Source: Capitulum mitella
Lineage: Eukaryota > Arthropoda > Thecostraca > Pollicipedomorpha > Pollicipedidae
Assembly: GCA_030062745.1 (NCBI GenBank)
Contig: CP099842.1
Coordinates: 29,141,307 to 29,205,306, forward strand
Length of the DNA: 64,000 nucleotides
Direction: 5' to 3'
Position 1 is the stretch's first letter; the number at the start of each line of letters is the position of its first letter. A program made the translations under genes and the position numbers. Positions 6,701 to 56,214 of the stretch are shown here, one piece after another. The notes under the pieces are model-generated. The model was not told the DNA's origin. It saw only the letters and a program-made list of their open reading frames with translations, and ran no database searches.

Positions 6701-9700
6701 CACGGTCCGCAGGTGGCGCCAGGAGCGGCACCGGCTCCGCTCACTCACCCCGCGGCTGACGGGAGAGCCCGGGTACGTCTCGTACGGGCCGAGCCGCTCG
6801 GCCAGCTCGCACGAGGCCTCCAGAGCGCCGTAGTAGATGGTCTCGAAGATCTGCTGGTTCAGCAGCTCGGCCTTCTCCGAGTCGAACGGGTAGCGCATCA
6901 GGATGAAGGCGTCGGCCAGCCCCTGGACGCCGATGCCGATCGGCCGGTGGCGCAGGTTGGAGCGCCGCGCCTGCGGACGGCCCGCGCACGGCCGTTAGGG
7001 GCTGCAGACACTGGAGCGGGACCGGAGGGACGTCCGGTTGTGGGCGGGGCGTCACGGCCACGGGGTGTTACACCGGGTCGCGTGACCGCACGCTGTGATC
7101 ATGCCGCACGAAAATACGGCTGCTGGCAAGGAATGTCAAATGTGCCTGACAGCCGTGAAAGCAATGAGCCCTTGCTACAATCAGTGATGGTCCGCGAACA
7201 AATGCATGAAAACTGTTGTTGTTTATTAGTGTTTTCGGGCGCGCGGACTACCGAGGTCATTTTGCGCCCATCATGAAAACTGTACTCTTTGCGACTTTTT
7301 TACATCTTACGCCTAAAAATTTTTCTTAGTGAAAACAAATTAGCGCAATGCATTCCTTTATATCTCCGAAATAAACGTTTCGTTCCAAGACAACATCAAC
7401 AATCACAGCTACAGCACTGGCCAACGAACACTCCACGTAGCTCCACCGAAGACGAACGGCCAGACGTGCGGCAGGGCCTGCCACGAGCAGAGACGTCGCA
7501 GCCTCACCTCCGGCACCGGGTAGAAGTTGACGTCGATGATCTTGTTCAGATTGCGCGTCACCACCTTGGTGACCTCCTTCAGCTTCTCGAAGTTGTAGGT
7601 CTTGTCGTCGGTGACGAAGCGATTGAGCGCGATGGAGGCCAAGTTGCAGACGGCCACCTGCGCGGCGGTGACGGACGTTCAGCGGCGCCGAGCCGTCACG
7701 TTACGTGACGCCACCGGTCTGCCAGAGCAGCCTGCGCGGCCTGAGACTCAATACAGACAACTCAGACATTGAAAGACTCGGCCCTGGCTGGCCAGACGCC
7801 CGTCTGCGATCCCATCTAGACAACACGTGACCAGCCTCATCCAGTGACCCGTCGCATCCCAGACCATTTCTGCCTCACTCAGTCTCGAACGACTGCATGT
7901 CCATGTCTGGATTCAAACTACGACCCACCCCAGGCCCGGGCAGTAACGCCATCAGGCACGACCCCGACCCGACCCAGTCCCACTGTCTCCGCTCTGACCT
8001 CATCCGGAGACGAGTACTCGATGATCTCGGTGCAGAGGTTGCTGCACTTGATGGTGCCCAGGTTCTGCTGGTTGGACTTGCTGTTACAAGCGTCCTTGTA
8101 AAGCATGTAGGGCGTGCCGGTCTCCACCTGCGACTGGATGATGGCCGCCCACAGGTCCTGGGCGCGCACCTGCTTGCGGAACCGACCCTCCGACTCGTAT
8201 CTGCCGGCCGAGCGGCTCGTCAGCACGCGAGCGCCGCCGCCGGAAGCGGACATCGGCGTTCGATCAGACTCAAGGGAATCCGTGCAGCGCTCGGTGATCG
8301 TTGTGGCAGCAGCGGAAACGCGAGAGTTGTACAAAGAAAAGGTTGACAGAAACTAGCTGGGGAACCACTCATGATTCACATATTATATGTTACCAGTTTT
8401 AGGAAAAACGTTAAAAGATCATCCTACGATCTTACGAGAACGACAAAACACGAGAAACATCACTCACCATTAGCAAGAGAAAGGAACCAGAAACAGGATC
8501 AGGGTTCACCACGAGAACTCGTTTTTCCGGACCGTCACAAGACCACGTACTTGGTGTAGAGCTTCTCGAACTCCTCGCCCCAGCAGTCGGCCAGGCCGGG
8601 ACACTCGTGCGGGCACATCAGGCTCCAGGTGCCGTCCGCCTCCACCCGCTTCATGAACAGGTCCGGGATCCACAGGCCGTAGAACAGGTCACGGGCGCGG
8701 TTCTCCTCCTTCCCAGTGTTCTTCCGCATGTCCAGGAACTCGAACACGTCGGCGTGCCACGGCTCCAGGTAGATGGCGAAGGCCCCAGGACGCTGCGGGG
8801 GACGGCTTTGTCGCGTTCGGAGACACAGGTGGAGCCGAGTAATTGACGTGCGCTCCGCGCCACACGCCCGACAGGGGACGCATCTCAGGCAATGACGTCA
8901 GACTTGGCCAAATACAGAGCGCACGCACGCGCATCAGACTTGTCCTGGTTCTTTGGAAACTGAAACTGCACCTCGAGTCATGAAGCTCTGGGCCTGTCAT
9001 CAAAATTGAGCGACCCTTTGTCAAAACACACCATTCAAACCCAAAAAGAAAGCCCGCACAAAAACGAGCTTGCAACAAGCAGTTCTTCTCAGAACCATAA
9101 AACGTGCATTTCTCACACTGCGACAGCCAAAATCAGCAATACCAGACCGTCCTGCACCAAAACCGTGGGGCACCAGGTAACTGTCATTCCGAATAACCTA
9201 GCACCACCCGGAACACGCTATCCTCGCACCTTGTTGCCGCCCTGGTCGACGTAGCGGGCCGTGTTGTTGTAGACGCGCAGCATGGGCACCAGGCCGTTGC
9301 TGGTGCCGTTGGTGCCGCTAATGTAACTGCCCGTGGCGCGGATGCAGTGTACGTTCAGGCCGATGCCGCCCGCAGACTTGGAGATGAGCGCGCACTGCTT
9401 GAGCGTGTCGTAGATGCCCTCGATCGAGTCGTCCGCCATGGTCAGCAGGAAGCAGCTGCGGCAGCGGGAGGCGCGATAAGCGGAAGCCGGACGACCACGG
9501 AAAAAATGTCGGCGACGGACGCCGCACGTCACCGCCAACAGAGCGGCGAATGAATCACTTCCACAACTGCCACAGCATACAATGCGAGATAGGGCCAGTC
9601 AAGGGCGAGGGCGGAACAGTCACCTGACCCGACAAAATGGCGGTCAGCTCCTCGCCCGTGACGCCACCGGTGAAGGGTCCCACCTGGACAGCTGCGGTCG

Positions 9701-13462: not shown

Positions 13463-16400
13463 GGGGAGAGTGGGGTAAGGCGCCCACTTGGGTAAAGCGC
13501 CCACCACCATCTAGCAGCGAAACTAAACGTCGTACCCCCATTTTAGAATTCTTGGTAAGCAGAAGCCTTTCGGAAAGGCGGCGGGATGGATTTTGGGGCA
13601 CCTGGTGAGTTCGAGCTAGTTACGGCGAAGCGATGTTTGTTTTCGTACGTTACGATGTAAAAAGTACAGACATTAAGATTACGTTTGTGTGTATTTGGCC
13701 GTTAGCTTACGCATAGCAACATATGGTGGCAAAAAGCCTTGTGTAAGAGCATGTGTATGGTATGATCTATTTGCGTCGTGATTGTCTCGTCAACCTGATA
13801 CGTTTGAAATAATTGTAAATGGCGCCTGTAGATAAAGCGCCCACCCCCAGGGTTGGGGTACAGCGCCCAGTGGGCGTTTTAACCGCACTTAGATGGGCGC
13901 TTTACCCTACATTCGTGCAAATAAAAAAACATCCTTGTATTTATGCATTCCGGAAGTCAAGAGTTAGAATCGGTGCTTGGTTGGCAGTGGAGCGAAAGGA
14001 CCTACGACAAAACTGACCGAGGGGTAGAAGGCCAGTACACTGTTTCCCCCTCCCCTCGCTTCAAAGTATGGTCTTGTTTTTTAACTAGTAAAATAATGCA
14101 TGACGTGACGCAGACCGGTGAGAGCTATCACCTTCATCCTAGTACAAGATGATACTGCCCCTCCCCTCGCATATAATGATACGCATAAGGGCTGCGCTGA
14201 TTTGTACTGATGCACCAACTTTCAGTGATGTCAGGGCTGTACTGTTGCAGATATCATGTCTCGAAAATACATAATGAAGACTACGTGGGCAAGCTATAAG
14301 TTAAGTTATATATAAGTTATAAGGCAAGCTGAAAGTCTACAAGCTGCGTTGACTGCTCTAGGAAATGGCGAAAATCTGAAAAGCGTGTCGACCCGATACA
14401 GTATCCCCCGCAGGACGCTCCGCCGCCATAGAGACAAGGTTGTCCGATCTCCAGGACGTCCGAAGCTGGAACGTCTCAGGCCAGACATCAATGAAGCATT
14501 TGAGGAGAAGCTTAAAAATTACTTTTTGGAAATGGAGAAGGCATTCTTTGGCCTAACGACTACCGATGTCCGTCGCCTTGCCTACGAGCTCGTCCAGATG
14601 GAAGGCATCATTAACCGATTTAACATGGAGCAGAAGATGGCCGGGCGAGACTGGCTACGTTGTTTCCTTCAACGCCATCCTGATCTCTATCCGGAAGCCT
14701 GAGGCGACCAGTTTGGCTCGAACTGTAGGATTCCACCGCCCACAAGTGAAACGATTCTTTGACAACTACGGAGAACAGCTCGACGCGTGCAAGGCGAACC
14801 CGACGCGAATATGGAACGCTGAGTCAGGACTGACGACGGTACAGCAACCAGACTGTGTTGGCTACCAGGGGACAACGCCGAGTGGGCAAGGTAACTAGCG
14901 CAGAGAAAGGTAGGACGGTGACAGTCATGTGCGTCTTCAATGCGTACGGACAGTACGTCCCACCAATGCTGATTTATCAGCGCAAGAGGATGGTAGAAAC
15001 ATGCTCAAAAGGTGTTCCGCCTGGTTCACTAGCCACAGTAACATCCTCCGGCTGGATGGATTGCGATTCATTCCTGGTGTGGCTCAAGCACTTCGCAAGC
15101 GTCGTGAAACCCAGTGAAGAGGCAAAACACATCCTCATTACAGATGGACACCAGAGCCACATGTCACTAGCCGCTGTCGACTATGCCCGAGAGTACGGAA
15201 TCACAATGATTATCTTCCGCCTCACTGCACCCATCGCATGCAGCCATTGGAGGCAAGTATCTACAAGGCACTGAAAAGTGCCTACAACACTGCTGCAGAC
15301 TGTTGGATGCATTGCCATCCTGGCAAGCGCATTACGGACTACCAGGTCGCGGAAATCTTCTGCACTGCCTACAGCAGAGCTGCCACCATCGAGAAAGTTA
15401 TCAACGGTTTCCGGTGTACGGGCTTGTGGCCCCTGGACACTAGCGTCTTCAACGAAGAAGACTTCGCTCCGTCAATGCTAACTAAAGAGGAAGATCCCCA
15501 CTGTCCGGATGGTCCCGCGGGTGTCTGTGAACAGCAGAGCAGGACGTCCTCTGCCGTCCAGACAGAGCAGGACGCTTCCAACAGTTCCAATTTTATCGTC
15601 TTAGGACAGCAAGCGGAGGCAACAGCGCATGCCGTACAAGACTCGGCGATTACGAACAGTGCAGAGAAGAGGACCTGTGAGCAGGCCCCGGGATTCTGTG
15701 CGTCAACGGCCATGCCTAGCACCTCAGCTTCAGGCTTAGCTGACATCTTTTCGCGAGTCAAAGCAGCGGTCAGAACGAGAACGAGGAAGGCGGAGAAGGC
15801 CGAACTCCTCACGTCTTCACCATACAAGAGGCGTCTTGAGGAGAAGAAAAAAGTGCCGGCAGTGAAGAAGGATGCCAACAAAAGCACAGTGCGCAACGAT
15901 AAGAATGGCGATATCACTTGCTTCGTGTGTGGCATGTTCTTTAGGCGCTCTTGTGAGCGCTAGATCGAGTGCACGGAGTGCAGCTCCTGGGCTTGCGAGC
16001 CGTGCACAGATGCAGACGAAAAGCAGAAGTCGTATGTCTGTGACATCTGCCGTAAAACCTGCAAAAGCAGCCGGAACCACCGGTGGAAGTCATTCGTGCA
16101 AACAGCAGGGGCGATTTTGTTCTAAAACTTAACATTTCTTCGTTCTTTATGGCAGTCCTTCTTCGGTGATATACGATTGTAGACTGGCGGATGGCAGTGG
16201 GAAGCCACGATTTCGTATGGTAGATACGTTGGTACATTTCTGAGGAACGCGATATTGAGTTCTTGTCTTCGCACGTTGTAGCAAGCGAAGAGCCTTTGGG
16301 CATTCCGTTTCTGCAGGTGGGGGGTTCAGGTCTTGTTTCTACGTGTACGTATGTATTCTAGCAAGTTTACTTTGCAAGAAATGCGCGCTGATAGACCTTT

Positions 16401-21581: not shown

Positions 21582-22020
21582 CATTGGACACAGCCAAGTT
21601 CGATCGCACCCGTTATCGGCCTGAGGCCTCTAGTAACCTACACCGCGTCTCTGGCGCATGCATTATGTTCCCATCCGTGCTGTTCGTCGCCAGTACAATT
21701 TACACTTAGGATAGGAAGCCTAACCTAACCTCATCTGACCTGGCCTGACCTGACCTGATCTAACCTAACCTAACCGCTGGACAGAGCCAAGTCCGATGGC
21801 ACCCGTTGTCGGCCTGCGGCCTTCGGTATCCCACACCTCGCCTTCGGCGCAACATTGCGCCCCATAAACGACTCCCTCCCTAGTTAATGAAGTTGATGAA
21901 GCAAAGAACATGGCGCAATGGCGGAATAGCCCAGTAATGCATTCCACTGGGTTACTGTGAAGGTGAATCTACAATTCCTATAGCTTCACGGCCGCGGTCC
22001 GCTCTCCGATGACACCGGTA
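21582..22020. repeat. TTAGG-associated repeat R2, two units with internal (CCTAA)n
   Basis: Units start near 21590 and 21776 with GGACAGAGCCAAGTCCGAT or a variant and continue through a CACCGCG...GGCGCA stretch. Between them, 21716-21775 is built of CCTAA and related steps, i.e. TTAGG on the other strand, the arthropod telomere unit. The same arrangement recurs at 31150-31860 and, on the opposite strand, at 55334-55560. Confidence 0.8.
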
Positions 22021-22352: not shown

Positions 22353-23704
22353 CCTACCCCGATTGGGAGGGTGGGGGGGGGCGTTGACCGACCCCTGGGG
22401 TTTTTCTAGGACTGCGAGAGATTGAACAAACACAGCGCCACGAAACTTCATGCACCTTTTCCTTGATCATTTTTACACCTTGTGTCAAAGTTTTGACCTC
22501 AAGTCAAGTAAGGTGTCTGAGCTAGGTGAGATTAAACGGACCTGTGCCCAAAAAACAAAAAAGTTTAGCGCCCTGTAACTTTTTTGCAAAACAAGATATC
22601 ACAGTAATACTTTCAGGGATTAGTGATCTTGATAAATGCAACAAATCTGCCATCTCATATTTTTCGGAATTTTCTGGGTCATACAAATCTGCCATCTCAT
22701 ATGTTCTGGAATTTTCTGGGTCATTGGCTTAATGTCAAGCCCATTTTTAAGACATGTCGTTGTTTTTTTTTCGGAAATTGGCGGATTTTTTCGCAACATT
22801 ATTAGTGTGGAGTGAAGCAGACATCTAGTTGCCGTCATTGGGCAAAGTATCAGTGACTTCCAGCCATTGACCTGAGGTCAGGTCACGAATAACTGTTGTA
22901 AGCCAAAATGTACCACCGTCAAAATCAGCGATGAATTACTCAGAATGGCTAGAAAATGGCACAACTGGCTTGCACAAACGTGAGTAATACCAAGAACCAC
23001 AAAAAAGCTTCAAAAACTGCATATTTTAGAAATAACATGCTCTGGCTAACAAAGCTCCGCCAGTTGTGTAGACTGGTAACTAATGAATTTTTGCCAAATT
23101 TAAGCATCAGAAACCATCACAAGAACCGCTTACACCAATAAAATTTACATTATCATGCTCTCACGAATAAAGCTTTGCCAATTGTGTAGATTGGTAACTA
23201 AATAATTTTTCCAAAATTTAGGCATCAGGAACTATCACATGAACCATTTAGATCAATAAAATTTACATGATTAGTTCCCATTAATTTCTTACTGTGTGCG
23301 ACTGCGGCGCACGACGACAACCGGCGTGAAAATTGCCGTGTCTTTAACTTAACGTTTCGTCGTATATCTTGAACAAATATGAGAAAATAGACGTGTATCG
23401 GCGTCTGCGGACCTTTACTTGTGCCTTGGTGCCTTTACCTATGCGTTATTAGTCACAGCCCCTGACATTCAGGTCGTTTCTCGGTCTCATGCAGTCGGCT
23501 ATGAGAAAACATATATAGGATGTAAATTGCTTACATATCATCTAAAGCTAAAAATGAGACTAGTTTCGAGCTCTACTCGTCACAAGCTTTCCCACGGTGT
23601 GCTTATTTCTATCGTGCGACCAATCGTTCGTAAGTTAGAGAGGGGCGGCCAACCTTCTCCCCCCCAGTCGGGCGTGATCATCGCCGACCCACGGTCGTGC
23701 GCGG
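22353..23704. mobile_element. piggyBac-like MITE family B, copy 1 (about 1.35 kb)
   Basis: Homologous end to end with 42030-42914. The left end reads CCTACCCCGATTGGGAGGGTGG and the right end CCCCAGTCGGGCGTGATC...GTGCGCGGG, bordered by TTAT on both sides (decayed TTAA). It is longer than copy 2 because it contains two internal duplications: about 42 bp at 22640-22725 (AAATCTGCCATCTCATAT twice) and about 115 bp at 23041-23272. Contains the everted AGGTCA pair TGACCTGAGGTCA at 22868-22880. Confidence 0.75.
23041..23272. repeat. About 115-bp tandem duplication inside the family B element
   Basis: AGCTCCGCCAGTTGTGTAGA...ATAAAATTTACATTATCATG is repeated, diverged, as AGCTTTGCCAATTGTGTAGA...ATAAAATTTACATGATTAG. 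Confidence 0.85.
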
Positions 23705-23867
23705 GTTATCGTGGTGGAAATGGAATGAAGAAATGGAAAAGAATAAGCATATGCAAAATGTGTAGATAAAAATGACATGTATATATTTATAAATATATGG
23801 AATATATGATGTAAAACAATATAATACAATGTAATATCTATTTGTATAATTAAAATGATAAAATAAG

Positions 23868-29890: not shown

Positions 29891-31100
29891 CCGTATTCCC
29901 GGCAGGGGGGGGGGCTGAATCCGCCCCTCGGGTTTTTTGCTTTCCAATTCCAGGCTTACTGACGCAGCTTCACAAAACTTGGTGACTTTTCCTAGCTATT
30001 CTTTCTACGTGCTGTGACAAAATTTCAAAATTCTATTTTGTTCACGGGCGGAGCCAGGCAACGTTTTTGGGAGGCGCCTCAGGCCATTTTTGGCCCTGTT
30101 GAGGGTAAAAGGAAAATGATTGCCAAAAATAGTGTTTTTAAGATAGAACTTAAAGCTTTACATGAGTGTATAGCAAAATTGTTGGGTAACGTGCAGATAT
30201 AATTTTGTTTATGTGAGGTCACGTTACAAGGTCAGGTCAAGGCCAAAAGTCAAAATTTGGTTTTGTAGCAATAATTTCGGCACTATTTTTCAAATGCCAA
30301 ACCCGGAATATATATGACGTAGAAGGGTGCCCTCTACTTGTGTATCAGGTTTCAGCTTGGTATCAGTTCGGGTCACGGAGCTATGACCTAAAATGTCAGT
30401 GTGCGTATCCTACATCACAACAGCCGTAAAATGGAATTTTTGAAGTAGTGTGAATTCAAATGATTGAAAACGTTTACAGATAATCTTAAATGCATGCGAG
30501 ATCATTTCAAGTTACTCCAAGGTCACTGGAGGTCATTTAAGATCAAAGGTCACAAGTTGATCTGAAGAACGTTTGACCATGACAGTGCCCCCTTTTTCAT
30601 GTCCCTGGCACCGCTTATGCTAGCATTATACAAACATTGTAATGCGATTTGTACTTCTTTAGTATCCCATGACATAACTAGCAGAAGCCAAAAAAGTGTT
30701 TTTGCTTTTTTTATTCATTCACCTGTTGGAACACTAATCCTCCTGTTTTTGAAAACCTGCGAACGCCTATGAATTTCCTCAAAAGTTCAAATGTATCTAC
30801 CAATGGTAAAAGTCTCATCCATAATCTCTCGATTCATGCCACTTTCATCGAAAACGGTCCATAAACAACGGAGTTATAAAAAATCCAAAATACTCCTAAT
30901 TTTGATATTTGTGCCCCCTGTATCCATCGCTTTCAAAATTTATGAAAATTTCTTTTTATTTAAGTGTAGTTTACGTCATGACAAATCGATTGCCGTTTGT
31001 TGCGATGCAATCGGATATGTAGTTCTCGAGATCTCGGGGGGGGGTGAGTCCTCCCCCCTGCCGGGAATCGACCATACCGTCTAGCCCTCCGGGAATAGGG
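29891..31100. mobile_element. piggyBac-like MITE family A, copy 1 (1210 bp)
   Basis: Flanked by TTAA (29887-29890 and 31101-31104). The left end is CCGTATTCCCGGCAGGGG, the right end CCCTCCGGGAATAGGG, inverted repeats. Just inside each end is a long G or C run (GGGGGGGGGG...CCGCCCC on the left, GGGGGGG...CCTCCCCCCTGCCGGGAAT on the right). No transposase reading frame. Carries several AGGTCA half-sites (30216, 30229, 30234, 30520, 30530, 30547). It split a larger R1-R2 composite repeat. Confidence 0.85.
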
Positions 31101-31149
31101 TTAAGGGATAATATGTGATTCAGTTTTAGTTGAAATTGATGAAGAATAC

Positions 31150-31860
31150 GCAAAAAGAAACGCTGGACAGAGCCAAGTCCGATCGCACCCTTTATTGTCC
31201 TGTGCCCTTTAGTATCCTTCACCGCGCCTTTCGCGCAGCATTAAGACCCAATCCGTGCTGTTCGCCGCCAATACAATTTCTTCTTCAGCTAAAAATCCTA
31301 ACCCAGCTTAACCTAACACAACATAACATAACCAGCCACACCCAATCTAACAATCTAACTTAACCTAGCCTAACCTAACCCAACCTAACCTAACCTAACC
31401 AAACCTAACCTAACTACTGAACAGAGCCAAGTCCGATCGCATCCTTTATCGTCCTGAGGCCTCTAGTATCCTACACCGCGCCTTCTGCGCAACATTACAC
31501 TCCCATCCGTGCTGTTCACCACCAATACATTCTCAGCTTCAGCTAAGAAACCCAACCCAACTTAACCTAACCAACCCAACCCAATCTAACAACCTAACCT
31601 AACCTAACCTAACCTAACTGTTGGACAGAGCTAAGTCCGATCGCACGCTTTATCGCCTGTGCCCTCTAGAAGCCTATAGCGCGTCTTCGGCGCAGCATGA
31701 CGTCCCATAAGCGCTCCCTTCCCAGTTAATGAAACATGGCGAAATACCGCAGTCCACGCATCCCGCTAGGTTAGTGTGGAAAGCGAGTCTACAGTTCCTA
31801 AAGTCTCACAGCCACGGTCCGTTCACCGATAAGACCGATGGCAATCACCGGTCCGATATA
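31150..31860. repeat. TTAGG-associated repeat R2, three units with (CCTAA)n blocks
   Basis: Units begin near 31160, 31418 and 31621 with GGACAGAGCCAAGTCCGATC or a close variant. CCTAA-rich blocks at about 31305-31412 and 31556-31618 separate them. The last unit continues into a tail matching 21890-22020. Confidence 0.85.
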
Positions 31861-33700: not shown

Positions 33701-34882
33701 CCCTATTCCCGGCGGGGGGCTGAATCCCCTCGGGTTTTTTGCCTGCCAATTCCAGGCTTTTTGACGCAGCTCCACGAAACTTTCTCACTTTTCCGAGCTT
33801 TTCTTTCTACGTACTGCAACAAAATTTCGAAATCCTATTTTGCCCAGAGGCGGAGCCAATGCAACGTTTTCGGGAGGCACCTTAGGTCATTTTTGGCCCT
33901 GTTTAAGGTAAAAAGGAAAATGACTGCTAAAAATAGAGTTTTTAAGATGGAACTAAAAACTTTATATGGATGTATAGCTTAGCAGTTCGGCAACGTGCAA
34001 ATGTAGTTTTGTTCATCTGAGGTCACTTTACAAGGCCAGGTCAAGGTCAAAAGTCAAGCTTTGGTTTTATAGCAATAGTCTCGGCGCTATGTCTTGAAAA
34101 GCCAAACCCGGAATATATATGACGTAGAAGGTGCTTTCTATTTGTGTATCAAGTTTCAGCTTGATATCAGGTCGGGTCACGGAGCTATGACCCAAAATGT
34201 CACTGCGCGTATCCTTTTTCAGAATGGCCGTAAAATGGAACTTTTGAAAAAAGGTGAATTCAAATGATTAAAAACGTTTACAGATAATGTTAAATGCACA
34301 AGAGATCACTAGAAGTCATTTAAGGTCAAAGGTCACAAGTTGACCTGAAGAGCATGTGACCATGGCAGTCCCCCTTTTCATGTCCCTGGCGCCGCCTACG
34401 CTAACAATATACAAACATTTTAATACGATTTGCACTTGTTTGGCATGACATGACTAGCAGAAGCCAAAAAAGCGCTTTCAGCTTTTTTGTTCATTCGGTT
34501 TTTGGAAAAATAATCCCCCTATTTTTGAGACCTTGTGAACGCCCATAAATTTCCTCAAGATTCCAAATGTGTGTACCAATGGTAAAAGTCCCATCCATAA
34601 TCTCTCGATTCATGCCAGTTCCATCGAAATCGGTCCATAAACAACGGGGTTATAAAAAGTCCAAAAGTACCCCCCATTTTGATGTTTTTGCTCCTCTTTA
34701 TCGACCCTTTCAAAATTTTGAAGATTTCTTTTAAAGTAAATGTAGTTTACGTCATGGGAAATCGATTGTCGTTTGCTGCAATGAAATCGGACGAGTAGTT
34801 CTCGAGATCTCAGGGGGGGGGGGGCCGAGCCCGTCCCCCCTGCCGGGAATCGGCCATACCATTTAGCCCTCCGGGAATAGGG
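33701..34882. mobile_element. piggyBac-like MITE family A, copy 2 (1182 bp)
   Basis: Flanked by TTAA (33697-33700 and 34883-34886). Ends CCCTATTCCCGGCGGGGG and CCCTCCGGGAATAGGG. Same orientation as copies 1 and 3. The DR1-type pair AGGTCAAAGGTCA is at 34323-34335. Confidence 0.9.
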
Positions 34883-34889
34883 TTAAGCC

Positions 34890-37946: not shown

Positions 37947-40900
37947 ATGGCTGGGCCTGCGAGGTCCGCGGCCGTCGGCCGGCCGCTGCTGCTGCTGCTG
38001 CTGGTCGCCGGCATCGCCGGCTGGAGGTTCGACGCGCTCACGCAGAGCTGGCAGCCGGACCCGGTCCCGGCGGCGGCCGACCACCGGCAGGGTTACGCCT
38101 ACGGCGGCGGCTACCAGCACGGCTATCAGCAGCAGTACCAGCCGGGGTACCAGCAGCACTACGATCGGGGGTACCACGACGTGGTGGCGTACAGCCGCGA
38201 CGGCAAGGAGCCGCAGACCAACAATACCGAGAAACAGCCAATGGAGAGCAAGAACAAGACAAAGGAGATGGACCCAATGGAGAGCAAGGAGAAGAAGAAG
38301 AGCATGGAGTGCAAGAATAAGGCAAAGTCCGGCCGTTGCCTGACCAGGAAGGAGCGGGAGCTCCTTCTTCCCAACGGCTTTATGCTGGCCTTCGAGCCGA
38401 AAGTAGCCTTCAATTTGTACAACAACGATAAAATGGGCCGTAAGTAAACCGGATGGTCGCATGTAGCGTTGGCATGCTTCTCGCGGCTTCCAGATGTAAC
38501 TGGTGGCCACCTTCAGCTAATTTTCCTGCGTAGGGGACGTTTGACCTCTAAAATTCCATTCCATTCAAAGAACCCCTTGAATCATCGCAGATCATTCGGT
38601 GACTTGGTTAACCCTATTCCCGGCAGGGGGGGCGGAATCCGCCCCCCCTCGGGTTTTTTGCTTGCCAATTCCAGGCTTTTTGACACAGCTTCACGAAACT
38701 TGGTGACTTTTCCTAGCTATTCCTTCTACGCGCCGTGACAAAATTTCGAAATTCTATTTTCCTCAGGGGCGGAGCCAGGCAACGTTTTTGGGAGGCACCT
38801 CAGGTCATTTTTGGCCATGTTGAGGGTAAAAGGAAAATGTCTGCCAAAAACAGAGTTTTTAAGATAGAACTTAAAACTTTATATGAATATATAGCTAAAT
38901 AGTTGGGTAATGTGCATATATAATTTTGTTTATCTGAGGTCACTTTACAAGGTCAGGTCAAGGTCAAAAGTCAAAATTTGTTTTTTCGCAATAATTTCGG
39001 CGCCGTTTTTTTCAAATGCCAAACCCGGGATATATATGACGTAGAAAGATGCCCTCTACTTGTGTACCAAGTTTCAGCTTGATATCAGGTCAGGTCACGG
39101 AGCTATGACCTAAAATGACAGTGCACGTGCCCTATATCGCAAAAGGCAAAAAATGAATTTTTTTGGAATAGAGTAAATTTAATCGATTAAAAACGTTTAC
39201 AGATAATATTGAATGCACACGACATCATTCCAGATGACCCCAAGGTCACTGGAGGTCATTTAAGGTCAAAGGTCACAAGTTGATCTGAGAAACGTGTGAC
39301 CATGACAGTTCCCCCTTTTTTATGTCCCTGGCACCGCCTATGCCAACATTATACAAACATTGTAATGCGATTTGTACTTCTTTAGCATAACATGACTAGC
39401 AGAAGCTAAAAAAGTGTTTTGGCCTCTTTTGTTCATTCCGTTATTGGAAAACTAATCCCCCTATTTTTGAAACCCTGTGAACGCCCATGAATTTTCTCAA
39501 AATTTCAAATTTGCATACCCATGGTAAGAGCCCTATCCATAATCTCTCGACTGATGCCAGTTTCATCGAAATCGGTCCATAAACAACGGAGTTATAAGAA
39601 GTCCAAAAGTACCCCCCATTTTGACATTTTTGCCCCCCTGTATCCACAAATGTCAAAATTTTGAAAATTTCTTTTTATAAAAATGTAGTTCACGTGACGG
39701 CAAATCGATTGCCGTTTGTTGCGATGAAATCGAATAAGTAGTTCTCGAGATCTCAGGGGGGGGGCCGAATCCGCCCCCCCTGCCGGGAATCGGCCATACC
39801 GTCGAGCCCTCCGGGAATAGGGTTAAAGAACATTTCAGAACTTACATTTCCATCAGGACCAAATTGTCGTACATTCCGGTCAAGTGGTGGTCACTGTCTA
39901 ACATCAGCCTCGAGTGCTGCCGTTACCATCTTGACGAAGGTGCAACCGTCAGGCATCCAATAGACTTTCAGCTAACGAGTCCTCTATTGAAGGCACTCGC
40001 GAGCAGGCGTAATTGCCTTTCCTGAGTGCAGTATTACTGGAACGTAAACCAGGACTCCGGTAATCGCATTTTAAGCAGGTACGCGAGTAAAGCCGTCATT
40101 CGAAATGGAGGCATGTAATGGACGGCTGGTCAAATGGGACATCAGCCGATGCTGGGGCCCACACTGGCCTCAGGATGGCATCCGGCCCGGTGGGGCCACC
40201 TGTAGGGTTGTAGGGTTCCGAGCCAGGCTGCTATCGACAGTCATGTTGTGTTGTGGGCAAACAGTTCTTGGGGAGGTCTGCAAGGAGTTGGTTTTGTGCT
40301 GCTACGATGCAAATCAGCGCATGCTATCCGCCATGCCCACTAAACCACATCAGTTGCAATTTGTTGCAATGGAACTAAGCAGTTTCAGTCTGTAAATGGC
40401 AGACGTTCCACATTTAATGTCATAGGCGAGCAAGTCCAGTGTGGTCGATATAGGTCGGTCGATTTATACAGGCCGCTAGTGACTGTATCCGTTCCCGGAG
40501 GCACTAAGAATTACCCAGGCCGCTGCCGAGCCTTGCCATGGTCAGCAATCGCTGTTCCCCGCAGTTGCTCTTCCTCATTCGCCCATTGCCTCGACTTAAG
40601 ACTTACAAGCACGAGCATTTCGCGCGCAGCCGATGTCCCACATGGCTGAGAGAGAGAGGCCGACGCCCGGCAATGAAAGCCGTCACCTCGCCAGCGACGT
40701 CCATAAAACAGGAGATGCTCATCTCGCTGGCCGGTCCGGGCTTCGTCGTCGTTGGACGGCCGGGCACGCCATCCAAATTGCCGGGCCGACACTGCTATTT
40801 GTCGACACGCACTCACTCCCGTGCGGCCTCGTCGCTGGCAGTGAAACCGCGCGAACCGTTCGAAAGGTCGCCGCGTGGGTCGCGCGCCAACTCGGGGAAG

Positions 40901-43900
40901 AGCGCAGTGGTGTCTCCTGTTCCTTATCCCACGGAGTTCATACATGGTTTTGTTCGTTGTGAGTTGACAGTTCACTCCAGGCTTCCTCAGCCTTGTTGGC
41001 AGCAATTTTATGTGAATATCCAGCTTTCATCGCCCCCGTTCCACCGTTATAGATCAAGCACGCATACGCAGAGCAACGCAGGCAAAACGGTTTATTGGAA
41101 CATGACAGAAGCATGACTGGGGATTTTCGAAACTTGTTGGAAGTCTGTTCTGCCAAGTATTTTAGACCGTCTTTTTTCATCCAGTGTCGCTGGCCTGGTG
41201 AAAAAATCTTTAAAAGGTGGGAAGGGCCCATCTCTCTCATTACCCCAAGATCTCCAGCGAATTCCGCAAGGAAGCAATTTCTCTGTCATCCGAGTCGCAC
41301 ATTCTGCTACAAGGCATCGTCGGAAAATCCGGAAAGTTACCGCAAACAACAGGTCTGTAAGTGTGTGCATAGCGCCGTGCCTACCTCTCGTTTTGTCAGA
41401 ACATCGCCTTAAACTCGTCACAAAACCGTGCGATGCCGCGGAGCACCATCCAAGTGCCAGCGCGGGTGTCTTACGCCCGTCCGTCCCGTTGTACCTCTAC
41501 TGGCGTCATTTCGCCAGTCACACGTGCACCAGCCGAGAGTACCTCTGTCTGCTGGGACTGTGTTTTCACCGGCATCCTGGCGGCCGCCAGTTCTGCGCAT
41601 CCTGGTCAAGACGGATATCCAGTACCAGCCGCCGGCGAACCTGGTGGACGCCGCTGGCAGGTCCATGCAGTCCTCCAAGATGATGATGGACAAGCAGATC
41701 ATCTACAACACCTTCAAGGCCACTATAACGCGGTATGTAGTCTTATAGCGCCGTATAGCCGTCATGTTTTCTTAATTTCTATTTTTTCAACGTGTGGTGG
41801 TTCACGGTTCACGGTTAGACGATTCAACGTGAAATGGTGCAAATCACCCCTGTAGCATTGCGCCAAAGGATAATGGCGCCTACAGTACTCCGTTTAGACT
41901 TGTTCACACAGAAAATTTTATTCGGGGCTGTCAAAGGCTGCGATCGCAAGCGTGCGAATGGATATGGAGAAATGACGTTCAATGACATGGTCTTCATCCT
42001 TCTCTCTTACCCAATCGTCACATATTTAACCCGTCCCCGACTTGGGGGACGGTTGACCGCCCCACTCTGAGGTTTTTCCAACGTTGCAAGAGACTGAACA
42101 AACACAGCACCACGAAACCTGTCAGACTTGTCACACTAGTGTGTACCTCTTGCTTGATCATTTTTACGCCTTGTGTCAAAATTCTGACCTTAGGTCAAAT
42201 CAGGCGTCTGACCTAGGCCAGGTCAAGTGGACCTATGCTCAGAAAAGTTTAGCGTCCTGTAACTTCTTCAGAAAGCATGACATCAGAATAAAACTTCCAG
42301 GGGTTAGAGATCTTGATGGATGCAACAAATCTGTCATCTCAGGTTTTTCGGAATTTCCCGGGTCATTGACCTGAGGTCAACCTAGTTTTTAAGACATGTT
42401 GTCATTTTTTGTTCAGCATTTGATAGTATTTTTTAATCATTTGTAGTGTGCTAATGCAGAAATCCTACGTCGCGAAAATCAACAAACGCTAAAACAGTTC
42501 CCGTTAATTTCATGCCGCGTTCGGCGGCAGCCGGCGCAAAAAGCGATGTGTCTTGAGCTCAATGTTTTGGTGTACACATTGAACAAATCACAGGAATTAG
42601 GTGTGTGCCGGTATCTGCGGACCTATACCTGCCCATTGGTACCTTTACCTAGACTTTATTAATCACAGTCCTTGAGGTCAAGACCGTTTCTTGGTGTCAT
42701 GCAGTCAGCTGTGAGAAAACATATACGGGGTGTAAATGGCTTATATATTATCCAAAACTAAAATGAGACCAGTTTCGAGCTCTACTTGTCACGAGCGTTC
42801 CAACGGTATGCTTACTTTTATCGCATGACCAGCCGTTCGTAAGCTAGAGGGGGGGGGGGGTCAGCTCCTCCCCCAGTCGAGCGTGATCGGTGGCGACTGC
42901 CAGTTGGACGCGGGTTAATGGAATCGTGAGGCGAGCAGGTTATGGCTTTATTCACTACCGGTTTCAAACCCGTCTCGGGCTCTTTGTGTGGTACTGGGCA
43001 CTGAGCGGAACAGGTCATGATAGACAGGAACAGCGGTTACATATAACTGCTGTTCCTGCTTATCGTGACCTGTTCTGCTCGGTGCCCTCTACCTCCTGAC
43101 GACGACCTCGAGACGGGTTTGAAACCGGACGGGTTTGAAACCGGTTGTGAATAAAACCATAAACTGGTCGCCTCACGATTCCATTAGATGTCTTACGATT
43201 CATAACATCTGAGGTTATGAGCTGTTCAAACGACTTCTGTCTTACGTTTTGACATGAGTTCCACGACGATGCATGTAATGTCTTATTTTGAGATGGTGTT
43301 TTTTTCCCGTTTTTCTTGTTTCTCTGGATAGGTACCAGTGAGTCAGTGCCGTCTCTAACCAGTGACCGGCGACTCCGTTTGGTCCTCTGACCATTGACTG
43401 GCGGCTCTGTCCCCTCCTCTGGCCAATGACCGGCGGCTCTGTCCCCGTCCTCTGTCCAGTGACCGGTGAGTCGGTCCCCCTTCTCTGACCAGTGACCGGT
43501 GGCCCGTGCGCCAGGTTCGGAGCGGACGGTGACGCCTGCCTGCAGAGGGCCGTCTGCGAGGTGGCCGAGGCGCCGCTCAGGAGGGACGGCATTATCGGAG
43601 AAATACTCAACATGGTCCTCTCGTAAGTACACCAAACGACCCCTAGTTCCGCCTGACAAAAGGCATGATGCCACGCATCAGTGCACTGATGCTACGCAGC
43701 AATGTATGGGAGTTTTCAAAGTTGGTAGGGCCAGAGCCAATGCAGTTTTTGTTTCATACGATACCACTGGGGTGATGTTGAAATTGTCTGGTTGGTGAGG
43801 TAAGTAGCTACCATCGCCACCGGACTTATCCTATGGGCTGCTACACTTATGATGTGATGCGCATTGCTCAAAATTGATTATCTCCACGGCATTCTCGCAA

Positions 43901-53583: not shown

Positions 53584-56214
53584 CAAGAGGTCCCTTTCCT
53601 GCAGCTTTTGCCTGGAGTTCCTTCAGCTTCTTTTGTTCTTCCTGTTGTTTTTTCTTAAACTCCATGTCACTCTGGGAAAACATTCAACTTTTGAAGTGTA
53701 CAACACATTCATCAGTGGTATCCATCACAAACTCCTACTAAAATAACCTGCACCATTTTTTAACTATTGTTTCAAAACAAACAAGGAACAAAATGCACTG
53801 AATAGCTATAAGGATTGTAAATGACACAAAAACAAAATCACTAAAAACCTTGCACATATTCTTAACTACAGTATATCTGTATGTCATTAATACACGGAAA
53901 TTATGGTTCCATGAGATGTTGAAGAGTCAACATATGGAACAGTCTGGCAAGAAATGATGGCTGCTAAGCAATGTGGCATGTCAATGTGGCATTTGACAGT
54001 AAGATGTAGGTGCCCTCTACAGGTGAGCATGCTAAGGACACTACATGATTGACAAACATGAGGCTACAATAATCTCATAACACCATCCTGTGTCTGAGTT
54101 GTACCAATGCCTGCACAACACAAGCAATTTTGAATTTCCTCTCAATATGGTGTTACTTTATTATCCTTGTTTTATTACTACACTCTGTATAATAAATTAC
54201 CTCATCCAGCTCCTTTCCTTGCTTCTTAGGAGCCTTCAGTGGTTTTTTCTTGCCTCCTGTACAAAACATGAAAAAATATGTTAATGTATCACATAACTGC
54301 ACACAGAGGTCATTATCCACACATTAACACATCAAGCAATAATGCATGAGACAAGTGAACCATCACCTGTGGTCTGCCTCCTGGATCAACCCAAGATTTC
54401 TGTAATGCATTAAGCATGGCTGGAATGATAATGTTCTATACATATTATCTAATCCTTCACCTGCAGCACACTGCCATGAAGTTACTAAATGGTTCTGCTC
54501 AGATCACATATTTATTACTACATTTTACTCCCTGCTCAGTCTCACACAGTGTCTGTTATGAGACATCCATCATGGTGTGGACAATTTAAAAACTGCTGTT
54601 TTCCTCTAAGCAACACTACTCACTATATACCACATTATTACCTTTTGCAGACCATTTTTGGAATAATGATTGTGCAGTAAAATAGACAAACTTTTATAGT
54701 AAACAAAAATTCATTTACACTCACACTACCATTTCCAAAGAAAATTGAGTAGCAATGCAATGCAAACAAATGGGAATGAAAATATTTTGTTTACAATGAA
54801 TTTGTTCCAAATACCTTTAAGCACTGCACAAAAACTGAACTGAGAGCATCAATGGATTCATAAATCTTAATGTGATGGATAGGTTATGCTAAGTTCAAGT
54901 CAAAGTTTGATTAAATTAGTTTAAGTTAGGCTGTTTGCAATGTACAACACCTACCAATGTCGAAAGTGACAAAATACCCCAACCTTGGAAATGCTCTTGT
55001 CAAATCACTTACCAAAGAATCTGGCAATACATTACTCTTTCACCTTTCACAGACCACTTTTGCTATACATAAGATGCAGAAGAGCTTAGACTTTCCTATG
55101 AAAGCAAGAAGTGGAAACTATACAAACCATACACCATACTTTGGAAACCATACACTACCAGTATGGTTTCCAAAGGAAATGGAGTTATATTTCAATGCAA
55201 GCAAATGGACCAGAATGGGTGGTGCCATCTTGTTTTCCCTGCCTTTGCTCCAAAGATGCCCTATGTACTGCATAACATTTGATGACATCATCAAAAAATG
55301 ACATGGGGAACAATGTTGTGCCAAAGGCACAACCCCGCACCAGAGGCACTGTATGGGATACTAGAGGTCATAGGCTGATATAGGGTGTGATTGGTCTTAG
55401 CGCAATCCAACAAAGGTTAGGTCGAGTGACTGAATAGGTTAGGTTAGGTTAGGTTATGCTATGTTAGGTGAGGATGGGTTAGGTTAGGTTTGATTAGATT
55501 AGATTAGATTAATCAGATTATGTTAGGTTAGGTTGGTTGGGTTGGTAAGGTTAGGCTAGTTATCTTGTTTATTATTCCTTAAGTTAGGGTATACTGATGA
55601 CATTATTAGGCCCAAAATACCTTCACCTTGGGAATTGCCCTTTTGGACTTTGTTACCATGAAACTGCAGAAGAAGTCAGACAACTGGAACAACAGTCAGT
55701 GATGAATGCAGTGACAATATTATTTGGTAACTTTTCTACTTTCTTCATCTTGGAATGTCATGTAGCAACTGAATCACAAGTTTTTGCCTCAAACCTGTCC
55801 ATTGTATGGTTTTTAATACCATTTATGCTGCTTTTCACTACTTCATGAAAATGTGATGTATGGCCTAGGATCCAAGCTGAGACCAGAGACTATACCTTGA
55901 AACAGTGTACCCTGAGTATTCACCCTAGCACCATTCTTAACTTTTACCATTTCTATGGAAAATGGGCAGCTGCTCCAAATGTGGTGCACAGCTACAATTC
56001 CGATGATGGCAAAAGTTTGACAGCTATTTATGTCACGCCTACTCGTATAAAAAACTGCATAACACACCCTATTTTCATGCCGAGGCACAAGGAACAGAGA
56101 TGCGTTTAAAGATCATAGGACCATCCACAAAATACAAACATCCTACCACAATTATAATAATTAAACCATTAAGTTAGCCCTCACATATTACAACTAACCT
56201 TCTCTTCCCGACAT
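53584..56214 (-). CDS. TMA7: Translation machinery-associated protein 7 (3 exons; terminal exon not found)
   Basis: A small, very basic conserved protein of about 64 residues, linked in yeast to ribosomes. Coding exons on the minus strand: 56214-56199 (MSGREG start), 54256-54201 (GGKKKPLKAPKKQGKELDE) and 53671-53584 (SDMEFKKKQQEEQKKLKELQ then AKAAGKGPL). All have GT-AG junctions and consistent phases (1, 0, then 1 at the last donor). This gives 53 codons plus one base, leaving about 10-11 codons (the usual GGIKKSGKK-type end) for a final exon. I searched the minus strand from 53580 down to about 52780 by eye for the conserved IKKSGKK ending and did not find it; the exon may be very short, diverged, or further left. 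Intron 1 (1.9 kb) contains a TTAGG-associated repeat. The whole locus is AT-rich with almost no CpG, unlike its surroundings. Confidence 0.9.
55334..55560 (-). repeat. TTAGG-associated repeat R2 in TMA7 intron 1, CpG-decayed copy
   Basis: Reading the minus strand, CCTAACC steps lead into a unit aligning with R2 of the 21-kb and 31-kb loci (ACCAATCACACCC for TCCGATCGCACCC, then CTCTAGTATCCCATACAGTG). The plus strand at 55435-55560 is rich in TTAGG and TTAGATTAGATTAG. CpG positions of the other copies appear as TG or CA. Confidence 0.75.

What the first reader, a model, noticed from the sequence alone, without database searches (positions are those of the whole stretch)
38612..39822. Family A piggyBac-like MITE carries an array of nuclear-receptor half-sites, one copy inside a gene
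All three copies share clusters of AGGTCA: one with overlapping sites in direct order (copy 3: 38937, 38950, 38955, 38961, including TCAAGGTCA, the extended site of FTZ-F1/ERR-type monomers) and one with AGGTCAAAGGTCA, a perfect DR1 as bound by RXR/HNF4-type dimers (39263-39275, 34323-34335; one mismatch in copy 1). The copy in DM4/DM12 intron 1 could act as an enhancer, and genome-wide spread would distribute hormone-response elements.
Basis: partly seen in the sequence, partly recalled or inferred. Interest (0 to 1): 0.75.

Follow-up and report, generated by a model that had tools for sequence, protein, structure and literature searches.

The report
Transposons seeding hormone-receptor-like DNA sites
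A family of small, non-coding jumping DNA pieces in what looks like an arthropod genome has spread thousands of copies of DNA words that nuclear hormone receptors can recognise; some of these words look better preserved than their surroundings, but whether receptors bind them, or genes respond, is untested.

Summary
Three TTAA-flanked copies (29891-31100, 33701-34882, 38612-39822) carry 7, 7 and 12 exact AGGTCA half-sites; the window has 85 against 30 expected. Copy 3 lies between an exon-like ORF and a DM4_12-encoding stretch. The family has about 6,000 or more copies (6,323 exact tips, control 0) and supplies an estimated 90% of 7,332 exact AGGTCAAAGGTCA (control 55). Two other TTAA-associated families (E, C) also carry AGGTCA clusters. 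Genome-wide DR4 is 32,896 vs 499, ER1 14,445 vs 41, IR1 3,219 vs 46. Conservation evidence is mixed: nine consensus half-sites changed 4 times on internal branches vs 17.9 matched (p 0.0013), but terminal changes are not significantly fewer (p 0.14), array 1 is not conserved overall, and DR1 retention is high in the 30 tip loci read (24) but ordinary in 65 further ones (35). This hints at constraint while the element multiplied; it is no evidence for a host enhancer at any copy. Closest precedent: Alu-driven spread of DR2 (PMC1785376). No binding or chromatin data; no mobilising partner found; species not identified.

The parts
38612..39822 (+). Family A MITE copy 3 (TTAA at 38608-38611 and 39823-39826)
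   Evidence: TTAA-CCCTATTCCCGG...CCGGGAATAGGG-TTAA; 40 further near-full-length copies at 91-98% among the best candidates scored (40 of 6,902 first-look candidates)
29891..31100 (+). Family A MITE copy 1 (TTAA 29887-29890, 31101-31104)
   Evidence: 86.6% identity to copy 3; its tip reads CCGTATTCCCGG
33701..34882 (+). Family A MITE copy 2, probably an older copy (TTAA 33697-33700, 34883-34886)
   Evidence: among the candidates scored (40 of 10,269), no other copy exceeds 84% identity to it
38937..38966 (+). Array 1: AGGTCA at 38937, 38950, 38955, 38961 (overlapping pair, DR0, TCAAGGTCA)
   Evidence: consensus sites 325, 338, 343, 349
39092..39111 (.). Inverted pair AGGTCA-CGGAGCTA-TGACCT (IR8)
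   Evidence: among the least-changed internal stretches
39243..39275 (+). Array 2: DR4-DR4-DR1 (AGGTCACTGGAGGTCATTTAAGGTCAAAGGTCA)
   Evidence: half-site columns 41 changes vs 66.4 matched, p 0.009
34323..34335 (+). Perfect DR1 in copy 2
30540..30552 (+). DR1 with one mismatch in copy 1
37947..38439 (+). Probable first coding exon (signal-peptide-like start by eye, GTAAGT donor at 38440); no Pfam match
43489..43623 (+). Stretch encoding part of a DM4_12 domain (PF07841), downstream of copy 3
22392..23708 (-). Family E element (second TTAA family with AGGTCA clusters); the span holds a 118-nt tandem duplication
42023..42858 (-). Family E element, partial, with two ER1 sites (42185, 42367)

Best explanation
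Family A is a high-copy, TTAA-specific, piggyBac-like MITE of about 1.21 kb without evident coding capacity. Its consensus carries nine AGGTCA half-sites: array 1, an IR8 pair, and array 2 (DR4-DR4-DR1). Shown: the sites are inherited from the element, spread to thousands of places, and family A is the main source of the DR1 word in this genome. Partly shown: the half-sites changed less than matched bases on internal branches, along which the element multiplied, and little or no less on terminal ones. Inferred: host nuclear receptors that read AGGTCA pairs (EcR/USP-type on DR4, RXR/HNF4/SVP-type on DR1, FTZ-F1/ERR-type monomers on TCAAGGTCA) bind the element and help the element itself, most simply by keeping it accessible in cells where transposase is made. 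Effects on nearby genes would be by-products at a minority of copies.
For: Copy number: 6,323 exact tips vs 0 control; 30 of 30 fetched tip loci are family A, 29 of them near full length. DR1 7,332 vs 55. DR4 32,896 vs 499: of 50 listed direct repeats left after setting aside 34 family A and 16 AGGTC-pentamer pairs, 21 are DR4 with 18 different spacers, so the spacing recurs while the spacer does not. DR1 intact in 24 of 29 tip copies read vs a mean of 13.9 for CpG-free 13-mers (0.7% of 688 words do as well; but see against). Nine half-sites: internal changes 4 vs 17.9, p 0.0013. In seven family E copies half-site mismatch is 0.081 vs 0.110 matched, p 0.044, and the first ER1 cluster is the least-changed stretch. 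A reporter DR4, AGGTCACAGGAGGTCA, one base from family A's AGGTCACTGGAGGTCA, was the most efficient EcRE for LdEcR-USP in yeast; DmEcR-USP strongly activated through ER6, IR0 (best), IR4, DR1, DR4 and DR5 (PMC5494300, passages seen). The host has 49 zf-C4 DNA-binding exon matches, receptor types not determined.
Against: No binding, chromatin or transposition data. With all ten consensus sites and 74 copies, total changes are not significantly fewer (p 0.08; rigid-block permutation 0.20) and terminal ones not either (p 0.18; 0.32). Array 1 is not conserved overall (p 0.61), and DR1 alone is borderline (p 0.05; window rank 0.10). The high DR1 retention does not extend: of 95 listed tips, 59 have DR1 at the expected distance, 24 of the first 30 but 35 of the other 65 (54%; mean word 48% in full-length copies); the difference has p 0.02, so the sample read was a lucky one (fragments among the 65 are unknown). 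Internal branches are only about 0.23 of 3.07 of the tree length, so their counts are small, and several subsets were tested without correction. ER1, the most enriched arrangement, is not a usual receptor site (recalled) and is absent from the active list seen in PMC5494300. The TIR and subterminal parts are more constrained than the half-sites.
Confidence: 0.37

Rival explanations
1. Passive hitchhiking. The AGGTCA words are just letters of the sequence that happened to found a successful MITE; they spread with it and decay at the neutral rate, and nothing binds them usefully.
For: Total and terminal changes at half-sites are close to those at matched bases (74 copies: total p 0.08, terminal p 0.18); array 1 not conserved; DR1 unexceptional among the 12 oldest copies and in 65 tip places not read.
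Against: Internal-branch depletion (4 vs 17.9), array 2 vs its own spacers, family E's conserved ER1 cluster, and recurrence in families E and C with different arrangements.
Confidence: 0.4
2. The AGGTCA pairs are docking sites for a protein of the transposition machinery or another host DNA-binding protein, not for nuclear receptors; palindromic ER1/IR1/IR8 forms reflect a dimer of that protein.
For: Both multi-member cluster components found in 194 kb outside family A (17 of 22 clusters) belong to TTAA-associated elements (E, C); A and E share diverged ends (E profile vs A consensus E 1.9e-5; A profile vs 4 of 7 E copies 4.9e-5 to 1.3e-3, a fifth 0.18; reversed controls 0.1 and 0.44); ER1 is the most enriched arrangement.
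Against: The sites lie internally (consensus 325-661 of 1212), not next to the TIRs; transposase regions L069-L072 carry only 1-3 AGGTCA per 4 kb (L073 has 7 in 4.4 kb, most outside the element), though none of these elements was seen to share family A's TIR.
Confidence: 0.17
3. The words come from telomere-like or satellite repeats (TTAGG / AGGTC pentamers) captured by the elements.
For: AGGTC pentamer runs exist (C1:111538-111683) and make up 12 of 100 listed DR4 hits; one cluster (k19) mixes AGGTTAGG and AGGTCAGG; TTAGG-type runs are in the window.
Against: Family A arrays have non-repeating spacers and fixed consensus positions; 88 of 100 listed DR4 hits are not pentamers.
Confidence: 0.04

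Closest known systems
Alu-borne DR2 retinoic acid response elements in primates (Laperriere et al. 2007, PMC1785376; abstract and outline seen)
   Same: One high-copy repeat family holds about 90% of one class of nuclear-receptor direct repeats (there 108,582 DR2; here 7,332 DR1 with A as spacer, 90% being an estimate).
   Different: Alu is a retrotransposon (recalled) and its DR2s arose largely by CpG deamination of a non-consensus motif; here the sites are in the consensus of a DNA-transposon MITE, with DR4, DR1 and IR8 together, and related themes recur in two other families. RAR binding was shown for several Alu-DR2s; no binding is known here.
piggyBac MITEs of crustaceans such as mPok1/mPok2 of Daphnia Pokey (PMC4912750, PMC3849761; search listing with abstract starts)
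   Same: Non-autonomous piggyBac-superfamily elements; TTAA target recalled.
   Different: Pokey has putatively autonomous groups and a specific rDNA site; no partner was found here. AGGTCA arrays in Pokey were not checked.
MITE families amplifying transcription-factor sites (E2F sites in Brassica MITEs: recalled; review PMC12595863 seen in listing only)
   Same: MITEs multiplying binding sites of a host factor.
   Different: Plants and another factor; not compared in sequence here.

Membership tests
piggyBac superfamily | TTAA target duplication on both sides | tested here: met
   All three window copies; 6,323 exact tips ending in TTAA
piggyBac superfamily | Terminal inverted repeats beginning CCC | tested here: met
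   CCCTATTCCCGG...CCGGGAATAGGG in copies 2, 3 and the consensus; copy 1 begins CCG. That piggyBac TIRs begin so is recalled
piggyBac superfamily | DDE_Tnp_1_7 transposase flanked by the same TIRs in the genome | tested here: inconclusive
   118 PF13843 matches; 5 regions read. L069 and L070 use CCCATTAACGCC, L073 about CCTATTAGTGCC, no TIR pair found in L071 and L072; the only family-A-like end, in L073, lies outside that element
MITE (non-autonomous) | No coding capacity, TIRs, high copy number | tested here: met
   Only one stop-free stretch of 100 codons or more lies wholly inside a window copy (103 codons, copy 1); thousands of copies. At 1.2 kb it is long for a MITE (recalled)
Nuclear-receptor response element | Exact AGGTCA pairs in known arrangements (DR1, DR4) | tested here: met
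Nuclear-receptor response element | Receptor binding and hormone-dependent activity | not testable with these tools
   No binding or expression data
Repeat-driven expansion of response elements (Alu-DR2 kind) | One repeat family holds most elements of one class | tested here: met
   Of the first 100 DR1 places, 59 have a family A tip at the right distance (24 of these confirmed by sequence); of the other 41, 21 were read and 16 are family A; estimate about 90%
Repeat-driven expansion of response elements (Alu-DR2 kind) | Recruitment of the receptor at copies in vivo | not testable with these tools
   Needs ChIP or CUT&RUN

The most novel reading that the evidence does not exclude
A clade of TTAA MITEs (A, E, perhaps C) uses host nuclear receptors as mobilisation factors. 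Paired AGGTCA sites, kept at receptor-compatible spacings (DR4, DR1, IR1) with free spacers, tie transposition to hormone-timed open chromatin, and the result is a genome in which DR1, DR4, ER1 and IR1 words are about 65 to 350 times more frequent than reversed words, largely as transposon cargo.
Probability: 0.2. Interest if true: 0.85.

Novelty: new variant of a known kind. Interest (0 to 1): 0.5.

Why it matters
If receptors bind these arrays, TTAA MITEs supply most DR1-type hormone-response words in this genome, and perhaps most ER1 and IR1 words too. That would make it a test case for how DNA transposons rewire endocrine networks, and for whether a non-autonomous transposon can be selected for host-factor sites that aid its own mobility. 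If nothing binds, it is a warning: motif scans for EcR/USP or HNF4 sites in this species would largely report transposons.

Tried and rejected
Rfam scan of the window: 0 matches. Pfam on ten ORFs found only DDE_1 and a ribonucleotide reductase exon. Autonomous partner: five of 118 transposase matches read, none fits. Family C as a proven relative of A or E: dropped (best C-E E 0.0035; a reversed control reached 0.045). 'Convergence in unrelated transposons' was my reading; set aside because both multi-member cluster components are TTAA-associated elements and A and E share diverged ends; the five single clusters were not classified. One distant relative as a subfamily (L023): its other scored matches were 80% or less, so it was used only as a single old copy. 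In one search half-sites vs rest were 92.5% vs 78.8% identical in L023, 81.1 vs 77.9 in L008, 75.5 vs 69.7 in L021, 92.5 vs 87.6 in copy 2 (W2); L058 has only 8 half-site columns. Rows dropped: matches under 300 nt and copies covering under 1,100 nt of the query, so 62 and then 74 copies were counted; L040 is the one tip locus left out. In print: searches over the held open-access library listed no report of nuclear-receptor arrays in arthropod MITEs; of their hits only PMC1785376 was opened (abstract), and subscription papers were not searchable.

Full report
OBSERVATION. The three copies are real and the coordinates are exact. Each is flanked by TTAA and ends in CCCTATTCCCGG / CCGGGAATAGGG, except that copy 1 begins CCGTATTCCCGG. 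AGGTCA occurs 85 times in the window against 30 expected from shuffles, 0 of 100 shuffles reaching it. Copies 1, 2 and 3 hold 7, 7 and 12 exact half-sites on both strands together. The DR1 is perfect in copies 2 and 3 and has one mismatch in copy 1. Beyond the finding, copy 3 also has two DR4 pairs leading straight into the DR1 (39243-39275) and an inverted pair with spacer 8 (39092-39111). Copy 3 lies about 170 nt behind a GTAAGT donor that ends an exon-like ORF, and upstream of a stretch with a DM4_12 match, E 4.2e-9. Joining them as one gene is an inference.

SIZE OF THE FAMILY. The window lies in a 477 Mb, 16-contig genome. The 19-base tip CCTCCGGGAATAGGGTTAA occurs 6,323 times, the reversed word 0 times. 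All 30 loci fetched from that list are family A: 29 near full length and one fragment, L040. These 29 copies lie 3-15% from their consensus. The exact word AGGTCAAAGGTCA occurs 7,332 times vs 55 for the reversed word. Of the first 100 places, 59 have a family A tip 500-600 nt downstream on the same strand (by position; 24 of the 59 are confirmed by sequence). Of the 41 others, 21 were read: 16 are family A (one, L083, only 73% alike; one, L076, with its DR1 in array 1), and 5 are not. I estimate that family A carries about 90% of these DR1 words.

ARE THE HALF-SITES CONSERVED? I counted changes by parsimony on FastTree trees and compared half-site columns with base-matched, CpG-free columns. 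All results, for and against, are as follows. 62 copies, nine sites (53 columns): internal branches 2 vs 13.3 (p 0.002), terminal 69 vs 91.0 (p 0.028), both 71 vs 104.3 (p 0.005), circular shift of the pattern p 0.05. 74 copies, after adding 12 older ones, with a tenth polymorphic site (190) in the consensus: internal 9 vs 19.9 (p 0.026), terminal 129 vs 144.0 (p 0.18), total 138 vs 163.7 (p 0.08); rigid-block permutation internal p 0.033, terminal 0.32, total 0.20. 74 copies without site 190: internal 4 vs 17.9 (p 0.0013), terminal 113 vs 129.5 (p 0.14), total 117 vs 147.4 (p 0.035). By part, total changes: array 2 half-sites 41 vs 66.4 (p 0.009; internal 2 vs 8.1, p 0.047), array 2 spacers 20 vs 22.6 (p 0.42), array 1 66 vs 64.1 (p 0.61; internal 1 vs 7.8, p 0.019), IR8 17 vs 31.2 (p 0.029; internal p 0.19), DR1 13 columns 22 vs 35.4 (p 0.051; rank among CpG-free windows 0.10; internal p 0.29). 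Internal branches make up only about 0.23 of 3.07 of the tree length, so the internal counts are small.

DR1 as an intact 13-mer: 24 of 29 tip-ascertained copies vs a mean of 13.9 (0.7% of 688 words as good or better); 57 of 74 overall vs 40.3 (2.3%); but 28 of 33 in the copy-3-like and window set (25% of words as good) and 5 of 12 in the oldest set (29%). Checked by position over all 95 listed tips in the same span, 59 have DR1: 24 of the first 30 and 35 of the other 65, a difference with p 0.02. At 62% DR1 would rank among the best 15% of words, at 54% among the best 37%; how many of the 65 are fragments is unknown. The 24 of 29 was thus a lucky sample. No correction for the number of subsets was made anywhere. 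My reading is weak to moderate evidence for constraint on the multiplying lineage, concentrated in array 2 and IR8, and little after insertion. The TIR and subterminal parts are more constrained still.

THE THEME IS WIDER. In 194,065 nt outside family A (window plus flanks of L009-L068) AGGTCA occurs 258 times vs 87 expected and ranks just behind TATATA, ATATAT, CGGCCG and GCCGGC among hexamers. Of 22 clusters of three or more sites, 17 fall into two multi-member components (9 and 8 clusters) and 5 stand alone. Family E (about 1.24 kb; TTAA-CCCGMGCACGACCG...CGGGTTAA or GGTTAA, TTAA seen at both ends in L018 and L010) carries several ER1 sites TGACCTnAGGTCA and, in L018, an IR1. Family C begins CACGCGCACTGG or nearly so after TTAA in four of five copies (not in L032); its other end was read in L032 only, as CAGTGCGCGTTAG, so a TTAA there is not shown. 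It carries clusters in tandem units of about 150 nt, and an IR1 in one copy, L030. By eye both have a G-run inverted repeat beside the TIR, as family A has. About 150 nt at the 5' end of family A match the inverted 3' end of E: E profile vs A consensus E 1.9e-5; A profile vs four of seven E copies 4.9e-5 to 1.3e-3, a fifth 0.18, two not listed; reversed-sequence controls 0.1 and 0.44. So A and E are probably distant kin; kinship of C is unproven. In seven E copies the half-site mismatch rate is 0.081 vs 0.110 matched (p 0.044; block permutation p 0.066), and the first ER1 cluster is the least-changed stretch.

ARRANGEMENTS GENOME-WIDE (reversed-pattern control in brackets): DR0-12 85,216 [2,482]; DR4 32,896 [499]; ER1 14,445 [41]; IR0-12 16,308 [523]; IR1 3,219 [46]. 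Of the 100 listed DR0-12 pairs, 46 are DR4. Setting aside 34 family A and 16 AGGTC-pentamer pairs, by word and nearness and not by alignment, leaves 50: 21 DR4 with 18 different spacers, 11 DR10, 18 others. The list is the first 1.8 Mb of one contig, not a random sample, and the remaining pairs were not assigned to families one by one. Spacing that recurs without the spacer sequence is what a dimeric binding protein would leave.

MECHANISM. A non-coding MITE gains only through its own mobilisation. Constraint on internal rather than terminal branches therefore points to something that helps the element move, not to a host enhancer at individual copies. The cheapest proposal is that AGGTCA-reading nuclear receptors bind and keep the element accessible when transposase is present. 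In yeast reporters DmEcR-USP strongly activated through ER6, IR0, IR4, DR1, DR4 and DR5, IR0 being best, and LdEcR-USP worked best on a DR4 one base different from family A's (PMC5494300, passages). The genome has 49 zf-C4 exon matches, types not determined. Binding, accessibility and any effect on mobility remain inferred. ER1, the most enriched form, is not a usual receptor site (recalled), which keeps another dimeric protein as a live rival. Passive hitchhiking is at present about as likely as the receptor reading.

WHAT IS KNOWN. The kind is known: Alu elements hold 90% of human consensus DR2 elements and several recruit RAR (PMC1785376, abstract). New here are a DNA-transposon MITE as carrier, sites present in the family consensus, several TTAA-associated families sharing the theme, and probably an arthropod host (TTAGG-type runs; that TTAGG marks arthropods is recalled; species not identified). 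A mobilising transposase with the same TIRs was not found: five of 118 matches were read.

VERDICT. Observation confirmed; the enhancer reading of copy 3 is untested; the spread of response-element-like words is real and larger than proposed.

Noticed in passing
window 22392-23708 and 42023-42858 (-); L018:2857-4095: Family E, a second TTAA element of about 1.24 kb with ER1 and IR1 pairs; ER1 occurs 14,445 times in the genome, in the listed places often as triplets about 140 and 182 nt apart.
   Followed up: partly
L032:237-1490; L003, L014, L022, L030: Family C, a third TTAA-associated element, with AGGTCA clusters inside internal tandem units of about 150 nt.
   Followed up: partly
L010, L011, L028 (in E); L003, L030 (in C): Family A copies sit inside family E or C elements, five cases among the loci read; whether this is target preference was not tested.
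   Followed up: no
L016:1501-3929: Two family A copies stand head to tail with nothing between them but the TTAA.
   Followed up: no
L005 and L092: Another repeat, about 70% alike over 507 nt between the two, carries a DR1 outside family A; L005 also has an IR1 475 nt away.
   Followed up: partly
G000:C1:111538-111683; window 21719-21775, 31297-31618, 55435-55559: AGGTC pentamer runs on one contig and TTAGG-type runs inside the window, possibly interstitial telomere-like repeats.
   Followed up: no
window 39060-39110 and 39550-39600: Family A holds two stretches of the form CCA(A)GTTTCA...TC...GGAG(C/T)TAT; I recall similar words from repeats of many invertebrates, unchecked.
   Followed up: no
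window 14834-15274 (+) and 9218-9598 (-): A DDE_1 transposase fragment and a ribonucleotide reductase large-subunit exon (Pfam).
   Followed up: no
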